64,000 nucleotides of DNA, taken from contig CAJXTB010000019.1 in assembly GCA_913061235.1 (NCBI GenBank), positions 62,001 through 126,000 of the forward strand, read 5' to 3'. A program made the position numbers and the translations under genes. This document shows, in pieces, positions 49,730 through 62,808 of the stretch. The notes below the pieces were generated by a model. That model worked only from the letters and a program-made list of their open reading frames with translations, had not been told where the DNA came from and did no database searches. The first letter of the stretch is position 1. Each line of letters begins with the position of its first letter. Source of the stretch: an uncultured Pseudomonadota bacterium. Its GTDB lineage: Bacteria; Myxococcota_A; UBA796; GCA-2862545.

Positions 49730-50317
49730 TCAGGCTGAAGCCGGTTCCTCGTCAGGAAGATCCGCGTACAGGTCGTCTAGGGCCACGTGAATCCCCATGT
49801 TCTCGATGACGAGAGCCTGTCCGGGACCAAATACGCGAAGCGTCCACGTACCGTCGTGCTGCCTTGAGAACAGCTCCACGCGCGTCACGTTGGTGCTGAC
49901 CAAGACGTAGTGCTCCAGCGTCTCAATGCTTCGGTAGTGGTCGAACTTGTCGCCGCGGTCGTAGCCTTCGGTGCTTGGTGAGAGCACTTCTGCGAGAAGC
50001 CGTGGATTAGTCATGGCGTGTGGGTCGTTCGGATGCCGAACCAAAGGCCCACAAACCACCGACAGGTCCGGGTAACTGGCGAAGTCCAGCTCCCTCGACC
50101 GAACCTTGCCGTCGGAATCGTACACATCGCACGAACCTGAATCGCCAAGACAGCCTTGAACACGGTACGAGAATTTAGCCTTCAGTCGAGAATGGCGCAG
50201 TGTGCCACCAGACATGGCCACCGCAACGCCCTCCAGAAACTCATGTCGAACGCCAGTCGAGGCTTCAAGGTCCAGGTAGTCTTGGTAGGAAAGCAGCTTG
50301 TGCGCAGGTCGAGCCAT
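49730..50317 (-). CDS. Uma2 family endonuclease (DUF820)
   Basis: 195 residues of the restriction-endonuclease-like Uma2 family: YLDLEASTGVRHEFLEGVAVAMSGG at the start, RELDFASYPDLSVVCG with the catalytic Asp, LLAEVLSPSTEGYDRGDKFDHYR with the Glu/Lys core. Function is unknown although it is common in cyanobacteria and myxobacteria. It is convergent with neither neighbour; it diverges from the AIM24 cluster, with 107 bases between starts. Confidence 0.85.
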   Translation of the reverse strand: MARPAHKLLSYQDYLDLEASTGVRHEFLEGVAVAMSGGTLRHSRLKAKFSYRVQGCLGDSGSCDVYDSDGKVRSRELDFASYPDLSVVCGPLVRHPNDPHAMTNPRLLAEVLSPSTEGYDRGDKFDHYRSIETLEHYVLVSTNVTRVELFSRQHDGTWTLRVFGPGQALVIENMGIHVALDDLYADLPDEEPASA

Positions 50318-50424
50318 GTGAACAGTCTACGCCTTGCATCGCTCCTGGGCAACGCCAATCCCCACACCACTCGATTGACTTTCGCCCTGCCACAGTCCAC
50401 TCTGCGCTCCCGCATGAGGTGGAA

Positions 50425-51120
50425 ATGAACATTGAGATAACAGCCCGTCCGTCCTACGGTATGGCGACAGTCACCCTGGACAAAGGCGAGAAAATCATCG
50501 CTGAGTCCGGCTCCATGGTGGCCATGACCAGCAAACTGGAGGTCGACACGGCCTTCAACGGCACCGGAAAGGGTGGGTTCATGGACTGGATCCAGGCCGC
50601 CTTCACCGGTCTGATGCGCAAGTGGTTCGCTGGCGAGTCGTTGTTCGTCAACCACTTCACCGCCAAAGAAGACGGCGAGCAGGTCATGCTTGCACCGACT
50701 CTGGTCGGAGACGTCGAGCACGTAAGTCTAGACGGCGAACGGCGCGTCACCGTTCAGGCGTCTAGCTACCTGGCGTCCACAACCGGCATTGATGTCGACC
50801 TCATCTGGGGCGGCTTTGCCATGCTCTTCGGTGGCGAAGGCGCATTCTTCCTGCGCTGTCGTGGAACCGGAGATGTCCTCATCAACGCCTACGGTGCCAT
50901 CACCAAGGTTCAGATTGACGGCAAATACCGAGTAGATACCGGCCATGTCGTCGCGTTTGAGGGCGACCTGAAGTACGCCATCAAGCGAGCCGGTGGCCTC
51001 AAGAGCACGTTGTTCAGCGGCGAAGGCCTGGTGATGGAATTCACCGGTACAGGCACGCTGTGGATGCAGACCCGAAACCTGTCGTCCTTCCTGGGCTGGC
51101 TCACTCCCTTCTTCCGCTGA
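50425..51120 (+). CDS. AIM24 family protein (first of three)
   Basis: 231 residues. Beta-barrel-like AIM24/TIGR00266 protein: SGSMVAMTSKLEV, MLFGGEGAFFLRCRGTGDVLINAYGAI, FSGEGLVMEFTGTGTLWMQTRN. The start ATG 50425 is preceded by GAGGTGG. Homologues are proposed lipid or membrane-associated proteins of unclear role (mitochondrial biogenesis in yeast). It starts the cluster of three. Confidence 0.88.
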   Translation: MNIEITARPSYGMATVTLDKGEKIIAESGSMVAMTSKLEVDTAFNGTGKGGFMDWIQAAFTGLMRKWFAGESLFVNHFTAKEDGEQVMLAPTLVGDVEHVSLDGERRVTVQASSYLASTTGIDVDLIWGGFAMLFGGEGAFFLRCRGTGDVLINAYGAITKVQIDGKYRVDTGHVVAFEGDLKYAIKRAGGLKSTLFSGEGLVMEFTGTGTLWMQTRNLSSFLGWLTPFFR

Positions 51121-51128
51121 GGCATGCC

Positions 51129-51824
51129 ATGAGAATCGAAATTCAATACCGGCCGGCTTACGCGTTGGCCATCGCGCACATTGAACCTGGAGATACCATC
51201 CTTGCAGAGGGTGGCGCCATGGTATCCATGAGCAGTAATGTCAAGATGGAGACGTCTGCCGGAAAGAAGGGCGACGGCATGTTGGGCGGGCTCATGAAGG
51301 GCCTCAAGCGCATGGTCGCTGGCGAGTCCTTCTTCCAGAACCGCTTCACCGCCGAAGGCAGCGAGGGTCATGTGACCTTCGCACCCACACCCGTTGGCGA
51401 CATCGCGGTGTACGACCTGGCGGAAGAGCTCGACCTGTACATGCAGAGCACCGCATTCTTGTGCTCGGATGACACCATCACCACCTCTGCCAAGTGGGGA
51501 GGCGCCAAGACCTTCTTCGGTGGCGAGGGCCTGGTCATGCTCAAAGCAACCGGCGCCGGTCCCATCGTCTTCAACTCCTTTGGTGGAATCCAAGAGATTG
51601 ATGTGGATGGTGAGTTCATTGTGGACACCGGACACATCGTCGCCTTCGAGAGCTCCTTGACCTTCAAGGTCAGCCGCTTCGGTGGTGGCTGGAAGGCGTT
51701 CATCTTCGGGGGTGAAGGCTTGGTGTGTCGCTTCACCGGCAGCGGAAAGCTGTGGATTCAGACGCGAAACATGAACGAGTTCGGCAAATTGTTGGGCCAG
51801 AAACTTCCGCCGCGGAGCAGCTAA
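51129..51824 (+). CDS. AIM24 family protein (second of three)
   Basis: 231 residues, starting 8 bases after the previous stop with GAGG upstream. It keeps GGAMVSMSSNVKME, FGGEGLVMLKATGAGPIV and the RFTGSGKLWIQTRN end. Similarity in pattern to its neighbours indicates tandem duplication followed by divergence. The three probably form a hetero-oligomer. Confidence 0.88.
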   Translation: MRIEIQYRPAYALAIAHIEPGDTILAEGGAMVSMSSNVKMETSAGKKGDGMLGGLMKGLKRMVAGESFFQNRFTAEGSEGHVTFAPTPVGDIAVYDLAEELDLYMQSTAFLCSDDTITTSAKWGGAKTFFGGEGLVMLKATGAGPIVFNSFGGIQEIDVDGEFIVDTGHIVAFESSLTFKVSRFGGGWKAFIFGGEGLVCRFTGSGKLWIQTRNMNEFGKLLGQKLPPRSS

Positions 51825-51828
51825 ACCC

Positions 51829-52503
51829 ATGAAACACTCTATTGAAAACAAGCCAGACTACGCATCCCTGCACGTCATCTTGGACAGCGGCGAAGCTGTT
51901 GTGACCGAGGCCGGCGCCATGATGGGCATGCACCCTGACCTCAAGATGAGCACGAACATGAAGGGTGGCCTGTTGGGCGCCGCCAAGCGCGCTCTCGGCG
52001 GCGAGAGCGTGTTCCTGAACACGTACACTGCTACGGGTGACGGACAGCGCCTAGACGTCGCTCCAAGCGCTCCAGGCGACATGATTCATCTGGCCCTCGA
52101 CGGCAGCATGGGCATCATGGTCCAGCGCGGTTCGTACTGCGCCAGCACACCCGGCATTGAAGTGAACAGCAAGTGGGGAGGCGCAAAGGCCTTCTTCGGC
52201 GGTGAAGCCGTCATCATGCTCAAGTGCACGGGTTCGGGTGACCTGTGGTTGTCCAGCTACGGCGCGATTCACGAAGTCGACATTGAAGGCAGCTACACGG
52301 TCGACACCAGCCACATTGTGGCGTTCGAGGAGACCGTGGACTTCACCATTGGCAAGACCGGCGGCATGAAGAGCTTGTTCCTGTCCAAAGAAGGACTGGT
52401 CTGCAAGTTCACCGGCCACGGAAAGGTCTGGATTCAGACGCGCAATGCTCCAGCATTGGCCAGCTTCCTGCATCCATTCCGGCGTGTTCAGAAGAAGAGC
52501 TAG
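51829..52503 (+). CDS. AIM24 family protein (third of three)
   Basis: 224 residues, starting 4 bases after the previous stop. Shares AGAMMGMHPDLKMS, FFGGEAVIMLKCTGSGDLWLSSYG and KFTGHGKVWIQTRN with the first two. It ends the operon; a hairpin follows. Confidence 0.88.
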   Translation: MKHSIENKPDYASLHVILDSGEAVVTEAGAMMGMHPDLKMSTNMKGGLLGAAKRALGGESVFLNTYTATGDGQRLDVAPSAPGDMIHLALDGSMGIMVQRGSYCASTPGIEVNSKWGGAKAFFGGEAVIMLKCTGSGDLWLSSYGAIHEVDIEGSYTVDTSHIVAFEETVDFTIGKTGGMKSLFLSKEGLVCKFTGHGKVWIQTRNAPALASFLHPFRRVQKKS

Positions 52504-52619: not shown

Positions 52620-55600
52620 ATGAACCCGATCCTCGCCCTCGACTCCACACGCTTCGACAACGCGGTTCTGCTCGGTAGTGGCGCGACCAGCCGCGTATAC
52701 CGGGCGGACGATACGCTCTTGGGCTTTCCGGTCGCCGTAAAAGTGCTCGATGACAGGGACAGTGGTCCCCTATTTCGACGTGAGTTCTCGTTGATTGCCG
52801 GAATCAATCATCCGGGAGTCACCCGGGTTTATGACTACGTTCGACGCGCCAGCAGTCACGCCATTGTGATGGACCTACACGACGGCCCGAGCCTCGATGT
52901 GTTCGAGGGCACAGGAGACTGGGACGACGATGCGTGGTTGTCTTTTGCGGACTTGTTGATTCAGGCCATCGGACACCTGCACGACAACAACGTTCTCCAC
53001 GGCGATATCAAGCCCGCAAACATCTGCATTTCAACAGGAGGCAAGCCCATCTTAGTGGACCTGGGACATGCTGTTCGTCCTGGCATTCGACTGCCGTGGG
53101 TAGGCATCACTCCCGCGTTCGCACCCCCAGAGAGCCTCATCGAAGCCTCTCCAACGTTCGCATGGGACGGTTGGGCTCTGGGCGTCACCTTGCACTGGCT
53201 GACTACCGGTTCCCTTCCCCTAGGCTCAAAGCGCCTTGACCACCCGTTGGGGCTCCTCATCGAGGGCTTGCTGCGGCGGGACCCCAAGCAGCGCTTAAGC
53301 ATCCAGCATCTTGCAAAAAACACGCTTTCAGACCTTCGAGGCGGCGCGCCGTCCACGGCCATGCCACCGCCGAAGCTTGCCGATCGGAACGGTCTGCCGG
53401 ACATTCAGGTCATCACATCCCTGGGTCCAATCCAGGCTACGCACAGTCTGCTACAAGCGCTACGCGCGCAGGGCTTACAACCGGTTCATGTCCTGTGCCC
53501 GCCGGGTCGCTTGATGCCCTACGAGGGGCTGGAAGAGCTCGCGGAGTATGCGGCGGCACGGTGCACTCCCTCCGATCAGAGCGCCCTCGCGCGCTTCTTT
53601 CCGTCCGTCGCTGCCAGAACGGGTCACACCGGAAATCCCGACCGAGCGGCGTGCGTCGGGGCACTCGGGCGGGGACTCCAGGCCCTGGGTCCCGTTGTGT
53701 TTCAAGGGGCTGATGACTTGGCGTCCACGAGCGGCACGCTCTTGGGAGACGCCCTGGTATCCGCCTACCAGGACGGCTTGTCTCCACAGCTCTTTGTCGT
53801 TGGCACACGTATCGAGAGCGCCTTTATCCAGGCTATTCGCGACGCCGTGGCAGCTACCCCCATGGTCGTTGAGCATCAGGTGTCCGACCGGCAAGACATT
53901 ACGAAATCACCCGTTCCATTCCAGAACAGCCCAACGGGAGTCGATGCGCTGCTCGGAGTCCTCAGCATCTGCCCATCTCCCATTCCACTCGGAACCCTGG
54001 TTCGCGCATCCGAGTTGCCGCAGACGCAGTTGGCGGCCGCCCTCAGCTTCCTACGCAGCCAGCAGTGCGTGGAGTGGTCCGTCCGGGGCGAGGGACTCTC
54101 GATCTCACTAAAGCCACGAGTGGTCCTGCCCACCACGGCAGTCCTCAAGACACCTCAGGCGACCCATAGCGCTCTTGCGGACCATCTTGTCGAACCTGCA
54201 CAACGCGCACATCACCTACACGCCGCCGGGCGGTCTAGCGAGGCAGAGGACGAGCTCACAACCGCCGCAACCGCCGCGGCACCGCACCCGAGCCGCGTTC
54301 GGTCATTGCTCTTGCAACTCGAGCACGTGCGGCCATTGACGGCGAACGAAGTCCAGCGTCTCGCAGATGCCAACTACGCTACGCGGCGTGCCCGGGAAGC
54401 GGCAGTTCGGTACCTGGCCCTCGCTGAGGACATGTCCGGAGCCCGCCAAGTCAGCCTCAGACGTCGGGCGGCGGGCCTTCTTCTGGCAGCGGCGTTCGAA
54501 TCAGACGGACTTCCCGTCATGGAATCCCTCTTAGACAACGTCTCGGGCTGGCTTCCGAAGCGCTTCCTGGCACAGATCGCTCGGCTCATCTGGTCCCATC
54601 ACAGCGGCGACCACAAGCTCCGAGTGCAGTTCGATGCTGCCCCAATGCCAGAGTCCGAGGCGGAGCAACTGCAAACACTGTTCGACGCCGCAGTCGGCGT
54701 GTCCATGTGGCGTCCGTTTCGCTCAGCAACCCTGCAAGCCGAGCTACTTCACCGTTCGCTCAAGTATTCCCCGTCGGTTCACTTGGTTCAAGCCCTCGCC
54801 GTGCACCTCGTCCAGACGTCGGGGTGGCGGTATGACATCGCGAAGTGCGAGCAGATCGGCCGCGTCATCGACGATGTCTCTGTGCACGTCGGCAGCTCCG
54901 AAGCCAAACAGTTTGCGCACCTCGCAACGGCGGGTGCCGCCTGGATGAATGCGCGCCCGATGGAGATTCGAAACCACGTCCAGAACGCAGCCGTATCCAT
55001 CGACGAAACCGGTAATCCCCATCCGTGGCTCCGCAGCACGGTCGGTATTCTTGAGACGGTGGCCTTGGCACGAACCGGACGGTTCTCTGAGCTCCGTCAG
55101 ACAGTACCGCGCCACCTCGCAGACGCCACTTCCCGTCAAGACCGGTATTCTGCGTGTCAGGTCCGCATTCACGGCGGTGTCTGGGTCGATCTGTGCGAAG
55201 ACCACATCGAAGCTGCGCGCTCTAATGTAGACGTCGCACTCGTTCCCTGGGCGTCGCTAGGCGTGACCATCTTGACCTTCTTCGCCCTACTCCGGCACAT
55301 CGACATCGACTTGTACACCGGCGATGCCCAACGAGCCTGGGACCGCCTGTCTCGCGCCCGGCGTCAACTGTCCATGAAGCCCATGTTCTCGCTCGATGCC
55401 CACCGTATGCTTGCCGACATCGCACAAGCGCGGATCTGTTCCGCCCTCATTCAATCGGGTCACACCAAGGCAAACCGAAGGGCTAACAAGACTATTCGCC
55501 AGCTCGGTAGATGGCCAGCCAAATGGGTTCGCGCCCACCGCTGCGCCTTATCGGCGGCGGCAGCAGACGCGGGTCCGGACCAAGCCACGTATGCGACAGA

Positions 55601-55742
55601 GGCCCAGACCCTGTTCGACCAGCTTGGCTCCACCGCCGAGGGGTGGGCCGTGGCGCGCCAATACCTATCGGGGCCAACCGAGTACACGGGTGTACGCAAT
55701 CCAACGGCTATGGCCCAGATGCTCTTAGGAACTTCACTTTAG
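52620..55742 (+). CDS. Ser/Thr protein kinase with long helical C-terminal tail
   Basis: 1040 residues. Kinase domain about 10-240: GSGATSRVYRA, VAVKVLD (Lys41), catalytic loop HGDIKPANICI (Asp129), DLG (Asp147), APPES. HGD and DLG vary from HRD and DFG but keep the catalytic acids, so it is probably active. Residues about 255-450 resemble the nucleotide-binding region seen in kinase-AAA-TPR proteins but lack a visible Walker A. The remainder is TPR-like helices. Such architectures sense and relay signals in myxobacteria. Two TIR genes follow on the same strand, after 137 bases. Confidence 0.82.
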   Translation: MNPILALDSTRFDNAVLLGSGATSRVYRADDTLLGFPVAVKVLDDRDSGPLFRREFSLIAGINHPGVTRVYDYVRRASSHAIVMDLHDGPSLDVFEGTGDWDDDAWLSFADLLIQAIGHLHDNNVLHGDIKPANICISTGGKPILVDLGHAVRPGIRLPWVGITPAFAPPESLIEASPTFAWDGWALGVTLHWLTTGSLPLGSKRLDHPLGLLIEGLLRRDPKQRLSIQHLAKNTLSDLRGGAPSTAMPPPKLADRNGLPDIQVITSLGPIQATHSLLQALRAQGLQPVHVLCPPGRLMPYEGLEELAEYAAARCTPSDQSALARFFPSVAARTGHTGNPDRAACVGALGRGLQALGPVVFQGADDLASTSGTLLGDALVSAYQDGLSPQLFVVGTRIESAFIQAIRDAVAATPMVVEHQVSDRQDITKSPVPFQNSPTGVDALLGVLSICPSPIPLGTLVRASELPQTQLAAALSFLRSQQCVEWSVRGEGLSISLKPRVVLPTTAVLKTPQATHSALADHLVEPAQRAHHLHAAGRSSEAEDELTTAATAAAPHPSRVRSLLLQLEHVRPLTANEVQRLADANYATRRAREAAVRYLALAEDMSGARQVSLRRRAAGLLLAAAFESDGLPVMESLLDNVSGWLPKRFLAQIARLIWSHHSGDHKLRVQFDAAPMPESEAEQLQTLFDAAVGVSMWRPFRSATLQAELLHRSLKYSPSVHLVQALAVHLVQTSGWRYDIAKCEQIGRVIDDVSVHVGSSEAKQFAHLATAGAAWMNARPMEIRNHVQNAAVSIDETGNPHPWLRSTVGILETVALARTGRFSELRQTVPRHLADATSRQDRYSACQVRIHGGVWVDLCEDHIEAARSNVDVALVPWASLGVTILTFFALLRHIDIDLYTGDAQRAWDRLSRARRQLSMKPMFSLDAHRMLADIAQARICSALIQSGHTKANRRANKTIRQLGRWPAKWVRAHRCALSAAAADAGPDQATYATEAQTLFDQLGSTAEGWAVARQYLSGPTEYTGVRNPTAMAQMLLGTSL

Positions 55743-55879: not shown

Positions 55880-56419
55880 ATGACCAAGCGCCACAAAGTG
55901 TTCGTCTCGTACCACCACGCCAACGACCAGCACTATCGCGACGCCTTCGAGAAGCTGTTGACGCACACCAATGACGTCATGGTGAGTCGGTCCGTGCAGA
56001 TCGGAGACATCGACCCAAACCTGAAGACCGAGACGGTTCGTCAGAAAATCCGTGACGAATACCTGCGGGACTCCACGGTCACAGTCGTGTTGATTGGAAC
56101 CCAGACATGGCAGCGCAAGCACGTCGATTGGGAGATTGCGTCGAGCGTACGAAACACTACGCTCAATCCACGGTCCGGGGTGCTCGGGATACTTCTTCCG
56201 ACGTATCCAACGCCGAAGACCTACAACAAGCACACCATCCCGCCTCGGCTGTGGGACAACGTTGAGGCCGGCTATGCCGAGGTCATCGCGTGGTCGACGG
56301 ACGCACAGTCGTTGCAGGACGCCATTCACCGGGCATTCCAACGCCGCATGACCCACCAACCGACAAGCAGCCGTAAGCTCTTCGCCAAGAACCGCAGCGG
56401 TGAAAAATGGACCCCGTGA
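55880..56419 (+). CDS. TIR-like protein, Thoeris ThsB-type (DUF1863)
   Basis: 179 residues. ATG 55880 follows AAGGA with a 9-base spacer. KVFVSYHHANDQ (6-17), IGDIDPNLKTETVRQKIRDE (41-60), TVTVVLIGTQTWQRKHVDWE (66-85) and GVLGILLPTYP (100-110) match the TIR-like DUF1863 family that contains ThsB. In Thoeris, this enzyme turns NAD into a cyclic-ADP-ribose isomer upon phage infection. Glu85 is a candidate catalytic residue. A second small TIR follows after 7 bases; no ThsA is next to them. Confidence 0.85.
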   Translation: MTKRHKVFVSYHHANDQHYRDAFEKLLTHTNDVMVSRSVQIGDIDPNLKTETVRQKIRDEYLRDSTVTVVLIGTQTWQRKHVDWEIASSVRNTTLNPRSGVLGILLPTYPTPKTYNKHTIPPRLWDNVEAGYAEVIAWSTDAQSLQDAIHRAFQRRMTHQPTSSRKLFAKNRSGEKWTP

Positions 56420-56426
56420 GTCTCGA

Positions 56427-56837
56427 ATGTCGTTGAGTGGGCACCGCGTATTCATTAGCCATCGGCACGACTATCACGACGATTTCGCCAGCCTTACCCG
56501 GCGTTTACGACGCGCCGGATTCGACGCGGTAGACACATCCGTTGCCGTACATGCTCGCTTTGAGGGCAAGCCCAAGTGGTGGCTGGAGCGCGAGATTGCC
56601 AAACGCATCCGAAATGCGGATGTGGTCTTAGTCTTCGGAAACATGGGCATAGTGAAAAGTGACTGGTGCGTTTGGGAGCTGGACCAGGCCATCAAGCACG
56701 AGCAGAACATTCTCGTGGTATTGCCTACGCAGTACTACGGAAACGTGCCGCGCCGAATACTGGCCGCCGACAATATGGGCGGTCCAGTAACGAACGCCGA
56801 CACCATAATTCGACGCTTGCAAGCTTCACTTAGCTAA
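56427..56837 (+). CDS. Second TIR-like protein
   Basis: 136 residues. The fold is TIR-like: HRVFISHRHDYHDDF (6-20), a middle FEGKPKWWLEREIAKRI, DVVLVFGNMGIVKSDWCVWE with Glu84 as the candidate catalytic residue, and ILVVLP. It begins 7 bases after the first TIR gene and ends by overlapping the stop of the convergent carotenoid-oxygenase gene by 4 bases. Sequence differs clearly from the first TIR, so it may sense a different trigger or make a different nucleotide. Confidence 0.8.
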   Translation: MSLSGHRVFISHRHDYHDDFASLTRRLRRAGFDAVDTSVAVHARFEGKPKWWLEREIAKRIRNADVVLVFGNMGIVKSDWCVWELDQAIKHEQNILVVLPTQYYGNVPRRILAADNMGGPVTNADTIIRRLQASLS

Positions 56838-59163: not shown

Positions 59164-62100
59164 TCACGGGGCCACCAAGCGGAACCTGTCGTGTCCATAC
59201 AACAGGTAGTTTGCCCAGTCTGAGTTGCCTTCTTCGAACAGCTTATTGCGTCCGGCACGCACGGCGTGGCCCAGCTCGCTGCCTTGGGCGAGCTCGCCAT
59301 AGACGACCTCAGCGAACATCGCCGCCCCTGTGTCCGAAACGGTCCAGAAGGTTCCCAAGTAGGCATCGACTTTGGCCATCAAGAAGAACTCGGCGAACGC
59401 CTGTGCACGAAGCTCCGCTGCTTGCGCCCCACGAAAACGCGCGGACTGACACGCGTTCACGAAGGCCAAACGCGGGACGTAGGCGAGGTCTTCGACGTCT
59501 TTAAGGGTCAGATGGCCATCGCTGCACACCAAGCCGCTGCTCGCGCCACCGGTGTCCCAGTAGAATGCATGTCCACAGTAGTGCAGCACGTCGTGCGTCC
59601 CATCGCCCAACTTTGCAAGAACAGCCTCTCGCGTGGCCCCTGCTCCCCGCAATACTGTGTGCCCGATTCCAACGGTCCGCAGACAGCCGACGACCCTATC
59701 GCCTTCGGCGTTCGCGCCAGGAAGGTCCTGTGCGGGGTCCACCACGACCAACACTCGCAGCGCATTGGCCTCTGGAGGCCGCAAGAAGGCATGTTCGAGT
59801 GCGCCCTGAACCCGAAGCCTACGGACAATACCGCCTTTCAGCGCCGGTCGAACCGCCTGGCCGGCTGGGTTGACCACACACATCGCCTCGTAAGGGATGG
59901 AACTTGCCTCGGCATCATGCGTCAGGAGCAAAGGTCGCTCGCCAAAGCGCCCAATCGTCCTAGATGCGTTCTCGCCCAGCAACAAGCGACCGACGTGTTC
60001 GCCGTACTCTTGCAGAACGTCGGCGGCAGGGGCGGAGTCGTACACCCCACCACGTAGGCGACGACGCTCTTCGGGTGCAAAATCAGAGACGAGGGTCGGT
60101 GTGAGCCCATTGCCGCGACGGAGCAACAAGGTCACATGGAGCGACTCGTCGCTCGCTGCAATATGCAGCAACTCGGCCTCATCCACGGCAGGAAGCTCAG
60201 TGGGCTCAAGCTTCGGCTTACGAACCGTCAGAGAGACCCGCTCGTCAGCTTCGAGCAATGCGCGAAGTGCATCGAAACGAGTGGGATCGGACTCAAACCA
60301 TAGCCACTCGGCGGCGCCGGGCGCTTCGCTTAAGCCATCCAACATGGGCTCGACAACATCACTCAAGTCCGACGCGACGTTGCCCAGGAAGGTCACCAAG
60401 CCCAGCTTCGAAAACCCATACCGCTCGGCAGCCGCAACGACTGACTGCGAGGCGCTACGTACAGCGGCTCCAGGGTCGTCCGTCACCTTGCTCATCTCTC
60501 CAAGCTTGGCCACGTACACGTAGTCCGCGTCGATATCGGCGGTGGGCAACGCCAGCGGTGTTCCTCGGTCGCGAGCCAAGGTCGCACTGCGTCCGGTGAC
60601 CCGATCGATGGTCGCGCCGGCCCCACCGAGGTCCACGTCGTCAAAGGCCGGTACCACAACCACGTCGAGGCCGCGCGCTTCGTGAATCGAACCTAAGGTC
60701 AGCTCAATATCGATGCGTTGGGCTCGTTGCTTCTCTCGGGTGCACAGAAGGCCGCGCATCACTATCGACGCAACGGTCATAGGGTCACGCGTGCGAAACA
60801 GAGTGTGGTTCTCCTCCACCGTCAACCCGTTCCACTCCCGCGACGACGCGTCATCCCTCAAGTAGCGAGTTCCCGCGACGCGCACGCGGTCAGCCAGGTC
60901 CTCCATGGTCGTTGGCAGCTCCAGACTCGCGACGGTCTCGGACTCCGCCTGCAGCCCCTCTACAAGGCTCGCAAACCACGGCTCGTGTCCCCAGGTCTCC
61001 TCGGACAGGAACTCGGGCGTATCGCCTCCCAACAGCAGCTCGGCCACGAGCCCAGCCGCGCCGCCAAAGCCACCAACCACGTAAAGCGGACGGCCTGCTT
61101 CGAGGGTTCGCCACGCCTCTTCTACCACTCCAGGGTACCGCCCACCGTAGCCAAGACGTTCAGGTTCGGTGTTCTTTGGAACATCTTGGCCGCCCAACAC
61201 AACCCGCGCTTGCGTCTTCAACGCCATCAATCGGCGCATGTCGCTGAAGTAGAGCGCCGCCTTCGCCGGGGTGGGCCCGGGCTCGTCCGCGGTCTTGGAC
61301 CAGGGCTCCAGCAGCGCCTCACTCTGCAGGTCGCCAAACGCACCCAAGTAGTGAGCGGTGAAGGAGAGGTCTGGTGCCTGCGCCGGGTTCAGCGGCACAC
61401 CAAGGTACGCATGCAGCATCTGCGTCGGTGTGGCAGATGTCTGATTGTAGGCCTGAAGAAGCTCAATGAGCAGCAGCGTGAAACCCTTCTTCCGAAAATC
61501 CCCGCCATAGGCAACCCCAACCCCAGCGCTGACCAGCGTCCGCGCCAGCGCCACAGTGACATCTATGAGGTGCTCATCGGTGATGCCATCGGGCCCTCTC
61601 CGGTCTGAGCCATCTGACAGTGACAGGGCAACCTGCATTCCGGCTAACGGCGCTTGAAAGGACCGACCGAGCAAACGGCTGTACGCAGAGGTCGGCGTGG
61701 CCAGTCGGAGCCGAGGGTAGGAGTCGTGCAGAACTTGGCGTTCATACACAGAGAGCTCGGGCTCAGGATGCAGCACCAAGGTCGGTCCTGCACGACGTAG
61801 CGATTCGACGTCCAGTAGCTCCGGCGGCCTAGACAAAACCACAGTGTCTCCAGGGAGTCCCGCCAGCTCGCAGACCCGCCGGCCCTCGAGCTGAAACAGC
61901 GCAGCACGGACTCCCTCCACCATGGCTTGGCGTGCCATGTCACGCGGAGCAGTGTCGCTGCTGTGGTCCCAGACGAATGTCGGACAGTTGCCACCGAACG
62001 ACAGGCTTCGTGGCTCGCCATTCGTCAGGACCTCCACCGCGATGGAGGGAATCCGATGCCGCTTGGCAATCAACAGCTCCTTTTGGCACCAAGCACGAGA

Positions 62101-62808
62101 GCTATAGGCATCTCCGCGAATCATGACGAAGACACCGCGACTCGCCCCCGCCTCGATTTGCTCGGCGAGAGCATCACCTGCGAGCAGGGTCACAGAGTCA
62201 AAGAACGCCCTCCCCGTGCTGTTTTGCGTCACATAATCATGAAGCAGCTTTGCGGCGTTCTGTGTGGCTCCGACATCTGCCTTGGCGTGCGAGATGAACA
62301 GCTGAGTGGACTGGTCGTCATCGGGACTGAGCACGCGTGCAACCGCCAGCACAATCTCGTCGAGTGTCGCTCCCCGTGCGTCTGCCGGGCCATACAGCTC
62401 GGTGAACAGTGGCTTGGTGGCTAGCTCCGAATCGGCCGCACGCCACGCCTCTGCTGTAGGAACCACCACAACACAGTGCTTCGGAAGCTGCTCCCCCCAT
62501 TCAGCCACTTGCTTAGTTGCGCGATTGCGAACTCGCTCATTCTGGTACGACAGGCCGCCGAGCACAACAATGACCATCACCCGTTCCGCTTCTTCCAGGT
62601 CCACTTGGTCAAAGCGTGTCGCCACACGCACTTGTACGCCCGCTCCTTGGCGCAGTGGCTGTTTCAAGGGCCGACTCAGCAAATTGTAGAGCTCTGTGCC
62701 CAACGTCGCTGCAAGAACGCGCTCCGGGTCTCCGGGGCGCTCGTCGACCCCTTCCGTGTCATGCGCCAGGGGAAAGTAGGTGGTGTGAACGATCAACTGC
62801 GGCTTCAT
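59164..62808 (-). CDS. TIR-SLOG-CHAT multidomain protein
   Basis: 1214 residues. ATG 62808 has GAGGG 5 bases upstream; a frame start at 62859 has none. Domains: residues 1-160 unassigned alpha/beta; TIR about 168-300 (QLFISHAKADVG, candidate catalytic Glu244 in AWCQKEL); SLOG-like Rossmann folds about 390-600 (GVGVAYGGDFRKKGFTLLL, LYVVGGFGGAAGLVAELLL); about 700-830 resembles the macro-like N-terminal domain of M17 aminopeptidases; CHAT protease about 1015-1214 with His1080 (YCGHAFYW) and Cys1120 (VNACQS). TIR can make a nucleotide signal, SLOG can bind it, CHAT can cleave proteins: a possible self-contained immune or death effector. It has no signal peptide. Confidence 0.8.
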   Translation of the reverse strand: MKPQLIVHTTYFPLAHDTEGVDERPGDPERVLAATLGTELYNLLSRPLKQPLRQGAGVQVRVATRFDQVDLEEAERVMVIVVLGGLSYQNERVRNRATKQVAEWGEQLPKHCVVVVPTAEAWRAADSELATKPLFTELYGPADARGATLDEIVLAVARVLSPDDDQSTQLFISHAKADVGATQNAAKLLHDYVTQNSTGRAFFDSVTLLAGDALAEQIEAGASRGVFVMIRGDAYSSRAWCQKELLIAKRHRIPSIAVEVLTNGEPRSLSFGGNCPTFVWDHSSDTAPRDMARQAMVEGVRAALFQLEGRRVCELAGLPGDTVVLSRPPELLDVESLRRAGPTLVLHPEPELSVYERQVLHDSYPRLRLATPTSAYSRLLGRSFQAPLAGMQVALSLSDGSDRRGPDGITDEHLIDVTVALARTLVSAGVGVAYGGDFRKKGFTLLLIELLQAYNQTSATPTQMLHAYLGVPLNPAQAPDLSFTAHYLGAFGDLQSEALLEPWSKTADEPGPTPAKAALYFSDMRRLMALKTQARVVLGGQDVPKNTEPERLGYGGRYPGVVEEAWRTLEAGRPLYVVGGFGGAAGLVAELLLGGDTPEFLSEETWGHEPWFASLVEGLQAESETVASLELPTTMEDLADRVRVAGTRYLRDDASSREWNGLTVEENHTLFRTRDPMTVASIVMRGLLCTREKQRAQRIDIELTLGSIHEARGLDVVVVPAFDDVDLGGAGATIDRVTGRSATLARDRGTPLALPTADIDADYVYVAKLGEMSKVTDDPGAAVRSASQSVVAAAERYGFSKLGLVTFLGNVASDLSDVVEPMLDGLSEAPGAAEWLWFESDPTRFDALRALLEADERVSLTVRKPKLEPTELPAVDEAELLHIAASDESLHVTLLLRRGNGLTPTLVSDFAPEERRRLRGGVYDSAPAADVLQEYGEHVGRLLLGENASRTIGRFGERPLLLTHDAEASSIPYEAMCVVNPAGQAVRPALKGGIVRRLRVQGALEHAFLRPPEANALRVLVVVDPAQDLPGANAEGDRVVGCLRTVGIGHTVLRGAGATREAVLAKLGDGTHDVLHYCGHAFYWDTGGASSGLVCSDGHLTLKDVEDLAYVPRLAFVNACQSARFRGAQAAELRAQAFAEFFLMAKVDAYLGTFWTVSDTGAAMFAEVVYGELAQGSELGHAVRAGRNKLFEEGNSDWANYLLYGHDRFRLVAP

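What the first reader, a model, noticed from the sequence alone, without database searches (positions are those of the whole stretch)
59164..62808. TIR-SLOG-CHAT protein: signal maker, sensor and caspase-like protease in one chain
One polypeptide holds a TIR (candidate catalytic Glu244), SLOG-like folds, a macro-like domain similar to M17 aminopeptidase N-termini and an intact CHAT dyad (His1080, Cys1120). In Thoeris, TIR proteins make cyclic ADP-ribose isomers that are sensed by SLOG or macro domains, and variants with caspase-like effectors are known. Here all parts are fused, so a TIR product could activate its own CHAT protease. The M17-like part may be a second nucleotide sensor. I do not know a described system with this exact order.
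Basis: partly seen in the sequence, partly recalled or inferred. Interest (0 to 1): 0.85.

Follow-up and report, generated by a model that had tools for sequence, protein, structure and literature searches.

The report
TIR-SLOG-macro-CHAT fusion, likely Thoeris-type effector
One bacterial gene joins an NAD-cutting type of domain, two nucleotide-sensing types of domain and a caspase-like protease, and it sits near genes that may make its alarm signal, so it looks like a new all-in-one killer protein of a known kind of virus-defence system.

Summary
The gene is on the minus strand (62808 to 59164, 1214 aa). E244 is invariant in 24 of 24 aligned relatives, H1080 and C1120 in 14 of 14. Six other complete proteins share the order, across at least three phyla, and form one supported group.

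The interpretation shifts. On re-alignment, the closest fold to the SLOG domain is the 3'cADPR-bound SLOG of the Thoeris effector ThsA. The genome's only two ThsB_TIR matches lie 2.4 and 3.0 kb away. Over 12 genomes with such SLOG genes, 8 have ThsB_TIR within 5 kb (0.1 expected). So it is most likely the effector of a Thoeris-type system with a separate signal maker. A self-contained relay is not excluded: two of four fused genes have no ThsB_TIR on their contig. It meets no Thoeris subtype tested. Novelty: new variant of a known kind. No activity was tested.

The parts
59164..62808 (-). whole gene, 1214 aa, stop codon included
   Evidence: open frame and translation
62320..62808 (-). N-terminal alpha/beta domain, residues 1-163; fold not identified
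   Evidence: aligned in all rows of A2; model; barely tested in the fold comparison
61900..62316 (-). TIR domain, residues 165-303
   Evidence: Pfam TIR_2 below cut-off; SARM1 TIR Z 14.7
62077..62079 (-). codon of Glu244, candidate TIR catalytic residue
   Evidence: invariant in 24 of 24 rows
60733..61650 (-). SLOG domain (LD_cluster2), residues 387-692
   Evidence: Pfam E 1.5e-44; BcThsA SLOG with 3'cADPR Z 16.5, 193 aligned, 3.0 A
61234..61236 (-). codon of Arg525, candidate ligand-pocket residue
   Evidence: invariant in 24 of 24; aligned with an Arg of SeThsA in a weak profile alignment, E 1.2
61117..61122 (-). codons of Glu563-Glu564, candidate ligand-pocket residues
   Evidence: invariant in 24 of 24; aligned with Asp-Glu of SeThsA, E 1.2
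60241..60714 (-). macro domain of M17_N type, residues 699-856
   Evidence: TTHA0132 Z 16.9; profile hits; no Pfam hit in the window sequence itself
59167..60186 (-). CHAT protease, about residues 875-1214
   Evidence: Pfam 937-1205; Csx29 Z 22.6 and separase Z 22.1
59569..59571 (-). codon of His1080, candidate CHAT dyad
   Evidence: invariant in 14 of 14 rows
59449..59451 (-). codon of Cys1120, candidate CHAT dyad
   Evidence: invariant in 14 of 14 rows
55880..56419 (+). ThsB-family TIR gene (179 aa), proposed signal maker
   Evidence: ThsB_TIR E 1.2e-19; Glu85 column kept in 10 of 10; position
56427..56837 (+). second, divergent TIR gene, possible second sensor
   Evidence: ThsB_TIR 2.2e-9 and TIR_2 6.5e-9; 19% identical to the first

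Best explanation
It is the effector of a Thoeris-type abortive-infection system. A separate ThsB-family TIR protein (55880-56419, perhaps with its divergent neighbour) recognises infection and makes an NAD-derived nucleotide, probably a cyclic ADP-ribose isomer. The SLOG domain of the large protein binds it, as ThsA SLOG domains do. Binding switches on the protein's own TIR as an NADase and, perhaps through the macro domain, its CHAT protease, so that the infected cell loses NAD and has its proteins cut. Shown: the domains, their order, the conserved residues and the gene neighbourhood. Inferred: defence function, the ThsB partnership, the signal, both enzyme activities and the order of activation.
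For: SLOG fold closest to 3'cADPR-bound BcThsA after re-alignment (Z 16.5). Arg525 and Glu563/564 invariant in 24 of 24. TIR Glu244 24 of 24 and CHAT His/Cys 14 of 14. Only two ThsB_TIR, one LD_cluster2 and two TIR_2 matches in the 7.18 Mb genome, all within 6.9 kb. ThsB_TIR within 5 kb of a TIR-SLOG gene in 8 of 12 genomes, 9 of 21 genes, against 0.1 genomes expected. ThsB genes directly follow the fused gene in G175. TIR-SLOG genes also sit beside ThsB_TIR genes on plasmids.
Against: Only 2 of 4 fused genes in the phylum search have ThsB_TIR within 5 kb, and none was seen near L047, L048 or L051, the first two on short contigs. The window's ThsB genes are on the other strand, behind a carotenoid-oxygenase-like gene, so they are not in one operon with it. 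The reverse test is weaker: 5 of 12 loci with a ThsB of 50% identity or more have TIR-SLOG within 5 kb, and similar ThsBs on other plasmids have other neighbours. The 5 kb limit was chosen after looking. The residue match to ThsA rests on a non-significant alignment. No phage assay exists.
Confidence: 0.5

Rival explanations
1. Self-contained relay: the chain's own TIR makes an NAD-derived product that its own SLOG or macro domain senses, and this fires its own CHAT; no ThsB is needed.
For: All parts are in one chain with invariant active sites. Two of four fused genes in the phylum search have no ThsB_TIR on their contig; none seen near L047, L048, L051.
Against: TIR-SLOG exists without CHAT and often near ThsB, and macro-CHAT exists without TIR-SLOG, so neither half needs the other. 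The own genome's only ThsB_TIR matches are nearby. It does not say how infection would start the TIR.
Confidence: 0.2
2. A cell-death or stress-signalling protein of social or environmental bacteria, triggered by NAD-metabolite changes, not a phage defence.
For: The window has no tRNA and, by my reading of the gene list, no obvious defence island around the gene; relatives of the CHAT part are found widely in the phylum (78 of 377 genomes have some match).
Against: Rarity (4 of 377 genomes with the whole length), spread over several phyla as one group, a serine recombinase beside the G175 copy and plasmid-borne TIR-SLOG relatives look like a mobile defence gene.
Confidence: 0.17
3. The TIR is only a scaffold for assembly; the SLOG domain senses the signal and CHAT is the sole effector.
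For: The window's TIR scores below Pfam's cut-off; that TIR domains often self-assemble is general knowledge, supported by a passage of PMC10022894.
Against: Glu244 is invariant in 24 of 24, all 7 fused proteins included; TIR-SLOG proteins without CHAT would then have no known killing activity.
Confidence: 0.1

Closest known systems
Thoeris type I (ThsB + SIR2-SLOG ThsA)
   Same: ThsB-family TIR gene nearby; SLOG domain of ThsA-like fold
   Different: No SIR2 and no STALD match in the window protein at E 1; the SLOG is LD_cluster2; the killing parts would be TIR and CHAT
Thoeris type II (ThsB + TM-macro ThsA)
   Same: A macro-fold domain
   Different: The macro domain is of M17_N type and sits beside CHAT; transmembrane segments were not tested
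Thoeris type III (NCBIfam ThcA, ThcB4)
   Same: Several TIR genes with a SLOG protein; ThcB4 aligns with the TIR part, ThcA weakly with the SLOG part
   Different: ThcA in the G085 locus is LD_cluster3; the window protein has 17.5 bits for ThcB4 against a cut-off of 220 and no ThcA hit at E 1
Thoeris type IV (TIR + caspase-like protease; known here from passages of PMC12847820)
   Same: TIR signalling linked to a caspase-like protease
   Different: Here TIR, SLOG, macro and CHAT are in one chain; the type IV effector's own domain layout was not available to me
SAVED-CHAT and Craspase TPR-CHAT (Csx29)
   Same: CHAT protease under control of a nucleotide sensor or partner; fold and profile matches
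   Different: Sensors are SLOG and macro, with an added TIR

Membership tests
Thoeris (general) | ThsB-family TIR gene in the locus | tested here: met
   two PF08937 matches 2.4 and 3.0 kb from the gene, the only ones in the genome; 2 of 4 fused genes overall
Thoeris (general) | effector with a SLOG or macro sensor joined to a killing domain | tested here: met
   fold and profile evidence
Thoeris (general) | protection against phage through an NAD-derived signal | not testable with these tools
   needs experiment
Thoeris type I | SIR2 domain joined to a STALD-type SLOG | tested here: not met
   no SIR2 and no STALD match at E 1
Thoeris type II | transmembrane segments joined to a macro domain | not tested
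   no transmembrane prediction was run
Thoeris type III (NCBIfam) | ThcA and ThcB4 models over their cut-offs | tested here: not met
   ThcB4 17.5 bits against 220, no ThcA hit at E 1; fused relatives L002, L047, L051 also far below
Thoeris type IV | TIR protein plus a caspase-like protease activated by N7-cADPR | tested here: inconclusive
   TIR genes and a caspase-like (CHAT) protease are present; ligand not testable; no model of the type IV effector to test against
CHAT protease | CHAT profile, fold and His/Cys dyad | tested here: met
TIR NADase | TIR fold and conserved catalytic Glu | tested here: met
   activity not tested; Pfam score below cut-off
cADPR-sensing SLOG | ThsA pocket residues (Ser288, Arg371, Glu403 in BcThsA) at matching places | tested here: inconclusive
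   invariant Ser396, Arg525, Glu563/564; Arg and Glu aligned with SeThsA at E 1.2 only; BcThsA residues from passages
M17_N / macro domain | Pfam Peptidase_M17_N cut-off | tested here: not met
   no hit in residues 660-936; macro-like by fold and through relatives only

The most novel reading that the evidence does not exclude
A two-step relay in one chain: an outside ThsB signal read by SLOG wakes the chain's own TIR, and the TIR's product is read by the chain's own macro domain, which releases the CHAT protease. The protein would turn a faint outside alarm into a local second messenger and then into proteolysis.
Probability: 0.2. Interest if true: 0.85.

Novelty: new variant of a known kind. 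Interest (0 to 1): 0.62.

Why it matters
If true, it joins in one protein the module types that are spread over the described Thoeris systems (TIR, SLOG, macro, caspase-like protease) and would let one watch how an NAD-derived signal is passed to a protease. Seven complete natural versions give material for structure and activity tests. It also draws attention to a wider TIR-SLOG (LD_cluster2) family that is often found near ThsB genes, also on plasmids.

Tried and rejected
The single-sequence scan of genome contigs found no relative; the four-row alignment found 46 loci. No relative was found in the phage records or in viral contigs at those sensitivities. PADLOC gave only partial, weak matches for the whole protein. 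The M17_N census listed mostly frames of aminopeptidase length and was not followed to architectures, so it does not say whether M17_N is joined to caspases elsewhere. I found no text on type III Thoeris or on the type IV effector's layout in the library. I recall, with no call behind it, that the type IV effector may carry an aminopeptidase-like sensor; I did not use this. Considered and dropped: artefact of assembly (six other complete copies), chance resemblance, phage gene. The combination TIR-SLOG-macro-CHAT was not found described in the open-licence library; subscription papers are not covered.

Rows left out: A2 (24 rows) leaves out L043 (cut by a contig end), L052 (N-terminal half missing at a contig end), L083, L086, L087 (partial) and four loci where TIR and SLOG are separate frames (L079, L084, L093, L096). 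L044 is in A2 though cut by a contig end. A3 (14 rows) takes seven fused proteins counting the window, L052 and six of the other CHAT loci, those reaching furthest or scoring best; many CHAT-only hits are not in it. The structure job used 22 of A2's 24 rows. One search covered 356 genomes and gave no row for G356, whose ThsB is known.
Full report
What is there. The gene runs on the minus strand from an ATG at 62808 to a stop at 59164-59166 and encodes 1214 residues without an internal stop. Pfam gives SLOG cluster2 at 388-670 (E 1.5e-44), CHAT at 937-1205 (E 8.9e-20) and TIR_2 at 171-253 (E 5.8e-5, below the curated cut-off). Two AlphaFold2 models, made from alignments of relatives, cover residues 1-700 (mean pLDDT 85, pTM 0.90) and 660-1214 (mean pLDDT 79, pTM 0.61); the lower pTM means that the placing of macro against CHAT is unsure. 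Re-aligned with VIA-align 2, residues 167-297 match SARM1 TIR (Z 14.7, 123 aligned, 2.4 A) and residues 387-692 match the BcThsA SLOG domain with 3'cADPR (Z 16.5, 193 aligned, 3.0 A), ahead of TRPM2 (Z 14.3, 223 aligned, 3.9 A). Foldseek's own list for that model starts with TRPM5 (E 4.6e-5) and TIR proteins, and ThsA is not among its 50 rows. In the second model, residues 699-852 match the macro protein TTHA0132 (Z 16.9, 148 aligned, 2.3 A); a designed hydrolase, 4etj, is slightly higher (Z 17.5). The C-terminal part matches Csx29 (Z 22.6, 305 aligned, 3.7 A) and separase (Z 22.1, 299 aligned, 4.0 A), with spans that reach into the macro region. A profile of the C-terminal half finds, by sequence, CHAT protein 8tl0 (5.5e-7), TTHA0132 (6.9e-6) and, weakly, M17 aminopeptidase N-termini (0.009 to 0.21). 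The window's own residues 660-936 have no Pfam hit, but relatives L059 and L064 are over the Peptidase_M17_N cut-off and continue into CHAT.

Relatives. In 377 genomes of the phylum, 78 had some match, mostly to the CHAT end, and 4 (own genome included) had nearly the whole length. The scan of genome contigs added whole-length relatives in a Verrucomicrobiia MAG (L047), an unassigned bacterium (L048) and a Schlesneria MAG (L051), and one cut by a contig end in Rhodopirellula maiorica (L052). Contig lengths shared between searches identify G317 as a Myxococcales MAG, G085 as a Kofleriaceae MAG and G175 as a Deltaproteobacteria MAG; the window's genome is in G317's family, so it is probably a myxobacterium relative (inference). 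All seven complete proteins have the five parts in the same order by my own profiles, which were built partly from them. On a tree of 24 TIR-SLOG regions they form one group with 100/100 support, which fits one fusion that then spread. Glu244 is invariant in 24 of 24 rows; His1080 and Cys1120 in 14 of 14.

Modules. Of the 24 aligned TIR-SLOG proteins, 16 end without CHAT and one more (L044) is cut by a contig end. TIR and SLOG are separate neighbouring frames on plasmids of Klebsiella and Mesorhizobium and in L079 and L084. Macro-CHAT occurs without TIR-SLOG, in L059 behind an alpha/beta hydrolase and in L064 alone. The fused protein thus joins two units that also occur apart.

Neighbours. The own genome has two ThsB_TIR, one LD_cluster2 and two TIR_2 matches in 7.18 Mb, all within 6.9 kb. 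In the phylum set 12 of 377 genomes have LD_cluster2. Over these 12 genomes and their 21 such genes, a ThsB_TIR match lies within 5 kb in 8 genomes and at 9 genes; uniform placement expects 0.1 genomes, P about 7e-16. The 5 kb limit was set after looking, and contig ends hide some neighbours. For fused genes alone it is 2 of 4: the window (2.4 kb) and G175, whose only two ThsB_TIR matches follow the fused gene (171 bp); G317 and G085:C8 have none on the contig. My profiles found no ThsB near L047, L048 or L051, the first two on contigs of 7.5 and 5.1 kb; L048 has a TIR_2-like frame at its contig end (24.5 bits, below cut-off). The window's ThsB is 54-60% identical to those beside TIR-SLOG genes in G175, G356, G260 and on an Aureispira plasmid, and 30-36% to those on Klebsiella, Priestia and Mesorhizobium plasmids; its Glu85 column is kept in 10 of 10 rows. 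In the window the two TIR genes are on the plus strand, after a kinase gene, and a carotenoid-oxygenase-like gene lies between them and the fused gene, so this is not one operon.

Reverse test. Of 12 loci in the phylum with a ThsB of 50% identity or more, 5 have TIR-SLOG within 5 kb; some of the other contigs are short. Of the 10 genomes concerned, 8 have LD_cluster2 somewhere, against 12 of 377 overall. Similar ThsBs on Acinetobacter plasmids sit beside a TPR gene and other TIR genes, on Citrobacter and Enterobacter plasmids beside a DUF1883 gene, and on an Aliarcobacter plasmid beside a TIR gene without a SLOG match. So this ThsB type has several partners, of which TIR-SLOG is one.

How it most likely works. 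In type I Thoeris, ThsB makes a cADPR isomer that binds the SLOG domain of ThsA and releases its NADase; Arg371, Lys388 and Glu403 are reported to coordinate 3'cADPR (passages of PMC7272460 and PMC10022894). TM-macro effectors bind ADPR-type ligands and assemble (abstract and passages of PMC11204291); type IV is reported to use N7-cADPR and a caspase-like protease (passages of PMC12847820). Here the SLOG fold and the invariant Arg525 and Glu563/564 fit a sensor of such a ligand; the residue match comes from a profile alignment with SeThsA at E 1.2 and is only suggestive. With ThsB genes at hand, the simplest path is ThsB signal, SLOG binding, then TIR and CHAT. The chain's own TIR may instead, or also, make the ligand of its own macro domain; my evidence does not separate these.

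Known or new. Type I fails (no SIR2, no STALD match at E 1) and so do the NCBIfam type III models. A type III locus in G085 has small TIR genes, a ThcB4-like TIR (182.5 bits, itself under its cut-off of 220) and a ThcA over its cut-off that is LD_cluster3: a cousin in layout, with weak profile similarity to the TIR and SLOG parts here. In the library I found TIR-SLOG mentioned as antiviral (passage of PMC9503650) but not this fusion. I rate it a new variant of a known kind.

Limits. Everything rests on sequence, predicted structure and gene position. Whether the macro domain binds NAD derivatives is untested.

Noticed in passing
L040:7986-11797 (G037:C423): A TIR-SLOG gene is followed, with the next frame starting where it ends, by a subtilisin-like serine protease gene (Peptidase_S8).
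   Followed up: partly
L055:7938-11160: A TIR-SLOG gene in a Schlesneria MAG is followed by a patatin-like phospholipase gene; the close relative L057 has no such gene listed there.
   Followed up: partly
L036:4745-11939 and L037:5266-11293: TIR-SLOG genes lie beside separate CHAT genes: in L036 a 1445-aa TIR-CHAT-TPR protein on the same strand, in L037 a CHAT gene on the other strand.
   Followed up: partly
L033:7103-7897 and L047:270-1109: Peptidase_C14 caspase-type genes lie near two fused genes that have no ThsB nearby; a protease cascade is conceivable.
   Followed up: partly
L059:6663-9812: An alpha/beta hydrolase, an M17_N domain and CHAT in one chain: another setting of the macro-CHAT unit.
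   Followed up: partly
L101:5984-12871 (G085:C79): A type III Thoeris-like locus (ThcB4-like TIR, ThcA) followed by a long gene that looks by eye like CHAT-STAND-TPR (not scanned).
   Followed up: no
L093:4619-7457 (Klebsiella plasmid pKpnB199): A ThsB_TIR gene, a TIR gene and an LD_cluster2 SLOG gene together on a conjugative plasmid, among transposase genes.
   Followed up: partly
L031:5886-7259: A serine recombinase gene lies just upstream of the G175 fused gene, as expected of a mobile island.
   Followed up: partly
window 52620-55742: A 1040-aa protein with an N-terminal Ser/Thr kinase domain lies just upstream of the two TIR genes on the same strand; its relation to them is unknown.
   Followed up: no
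window 50200-52503: Three consecutive similar genes that look like AIM24-family proteins (name recalled, not scanned).
   Followed up: no
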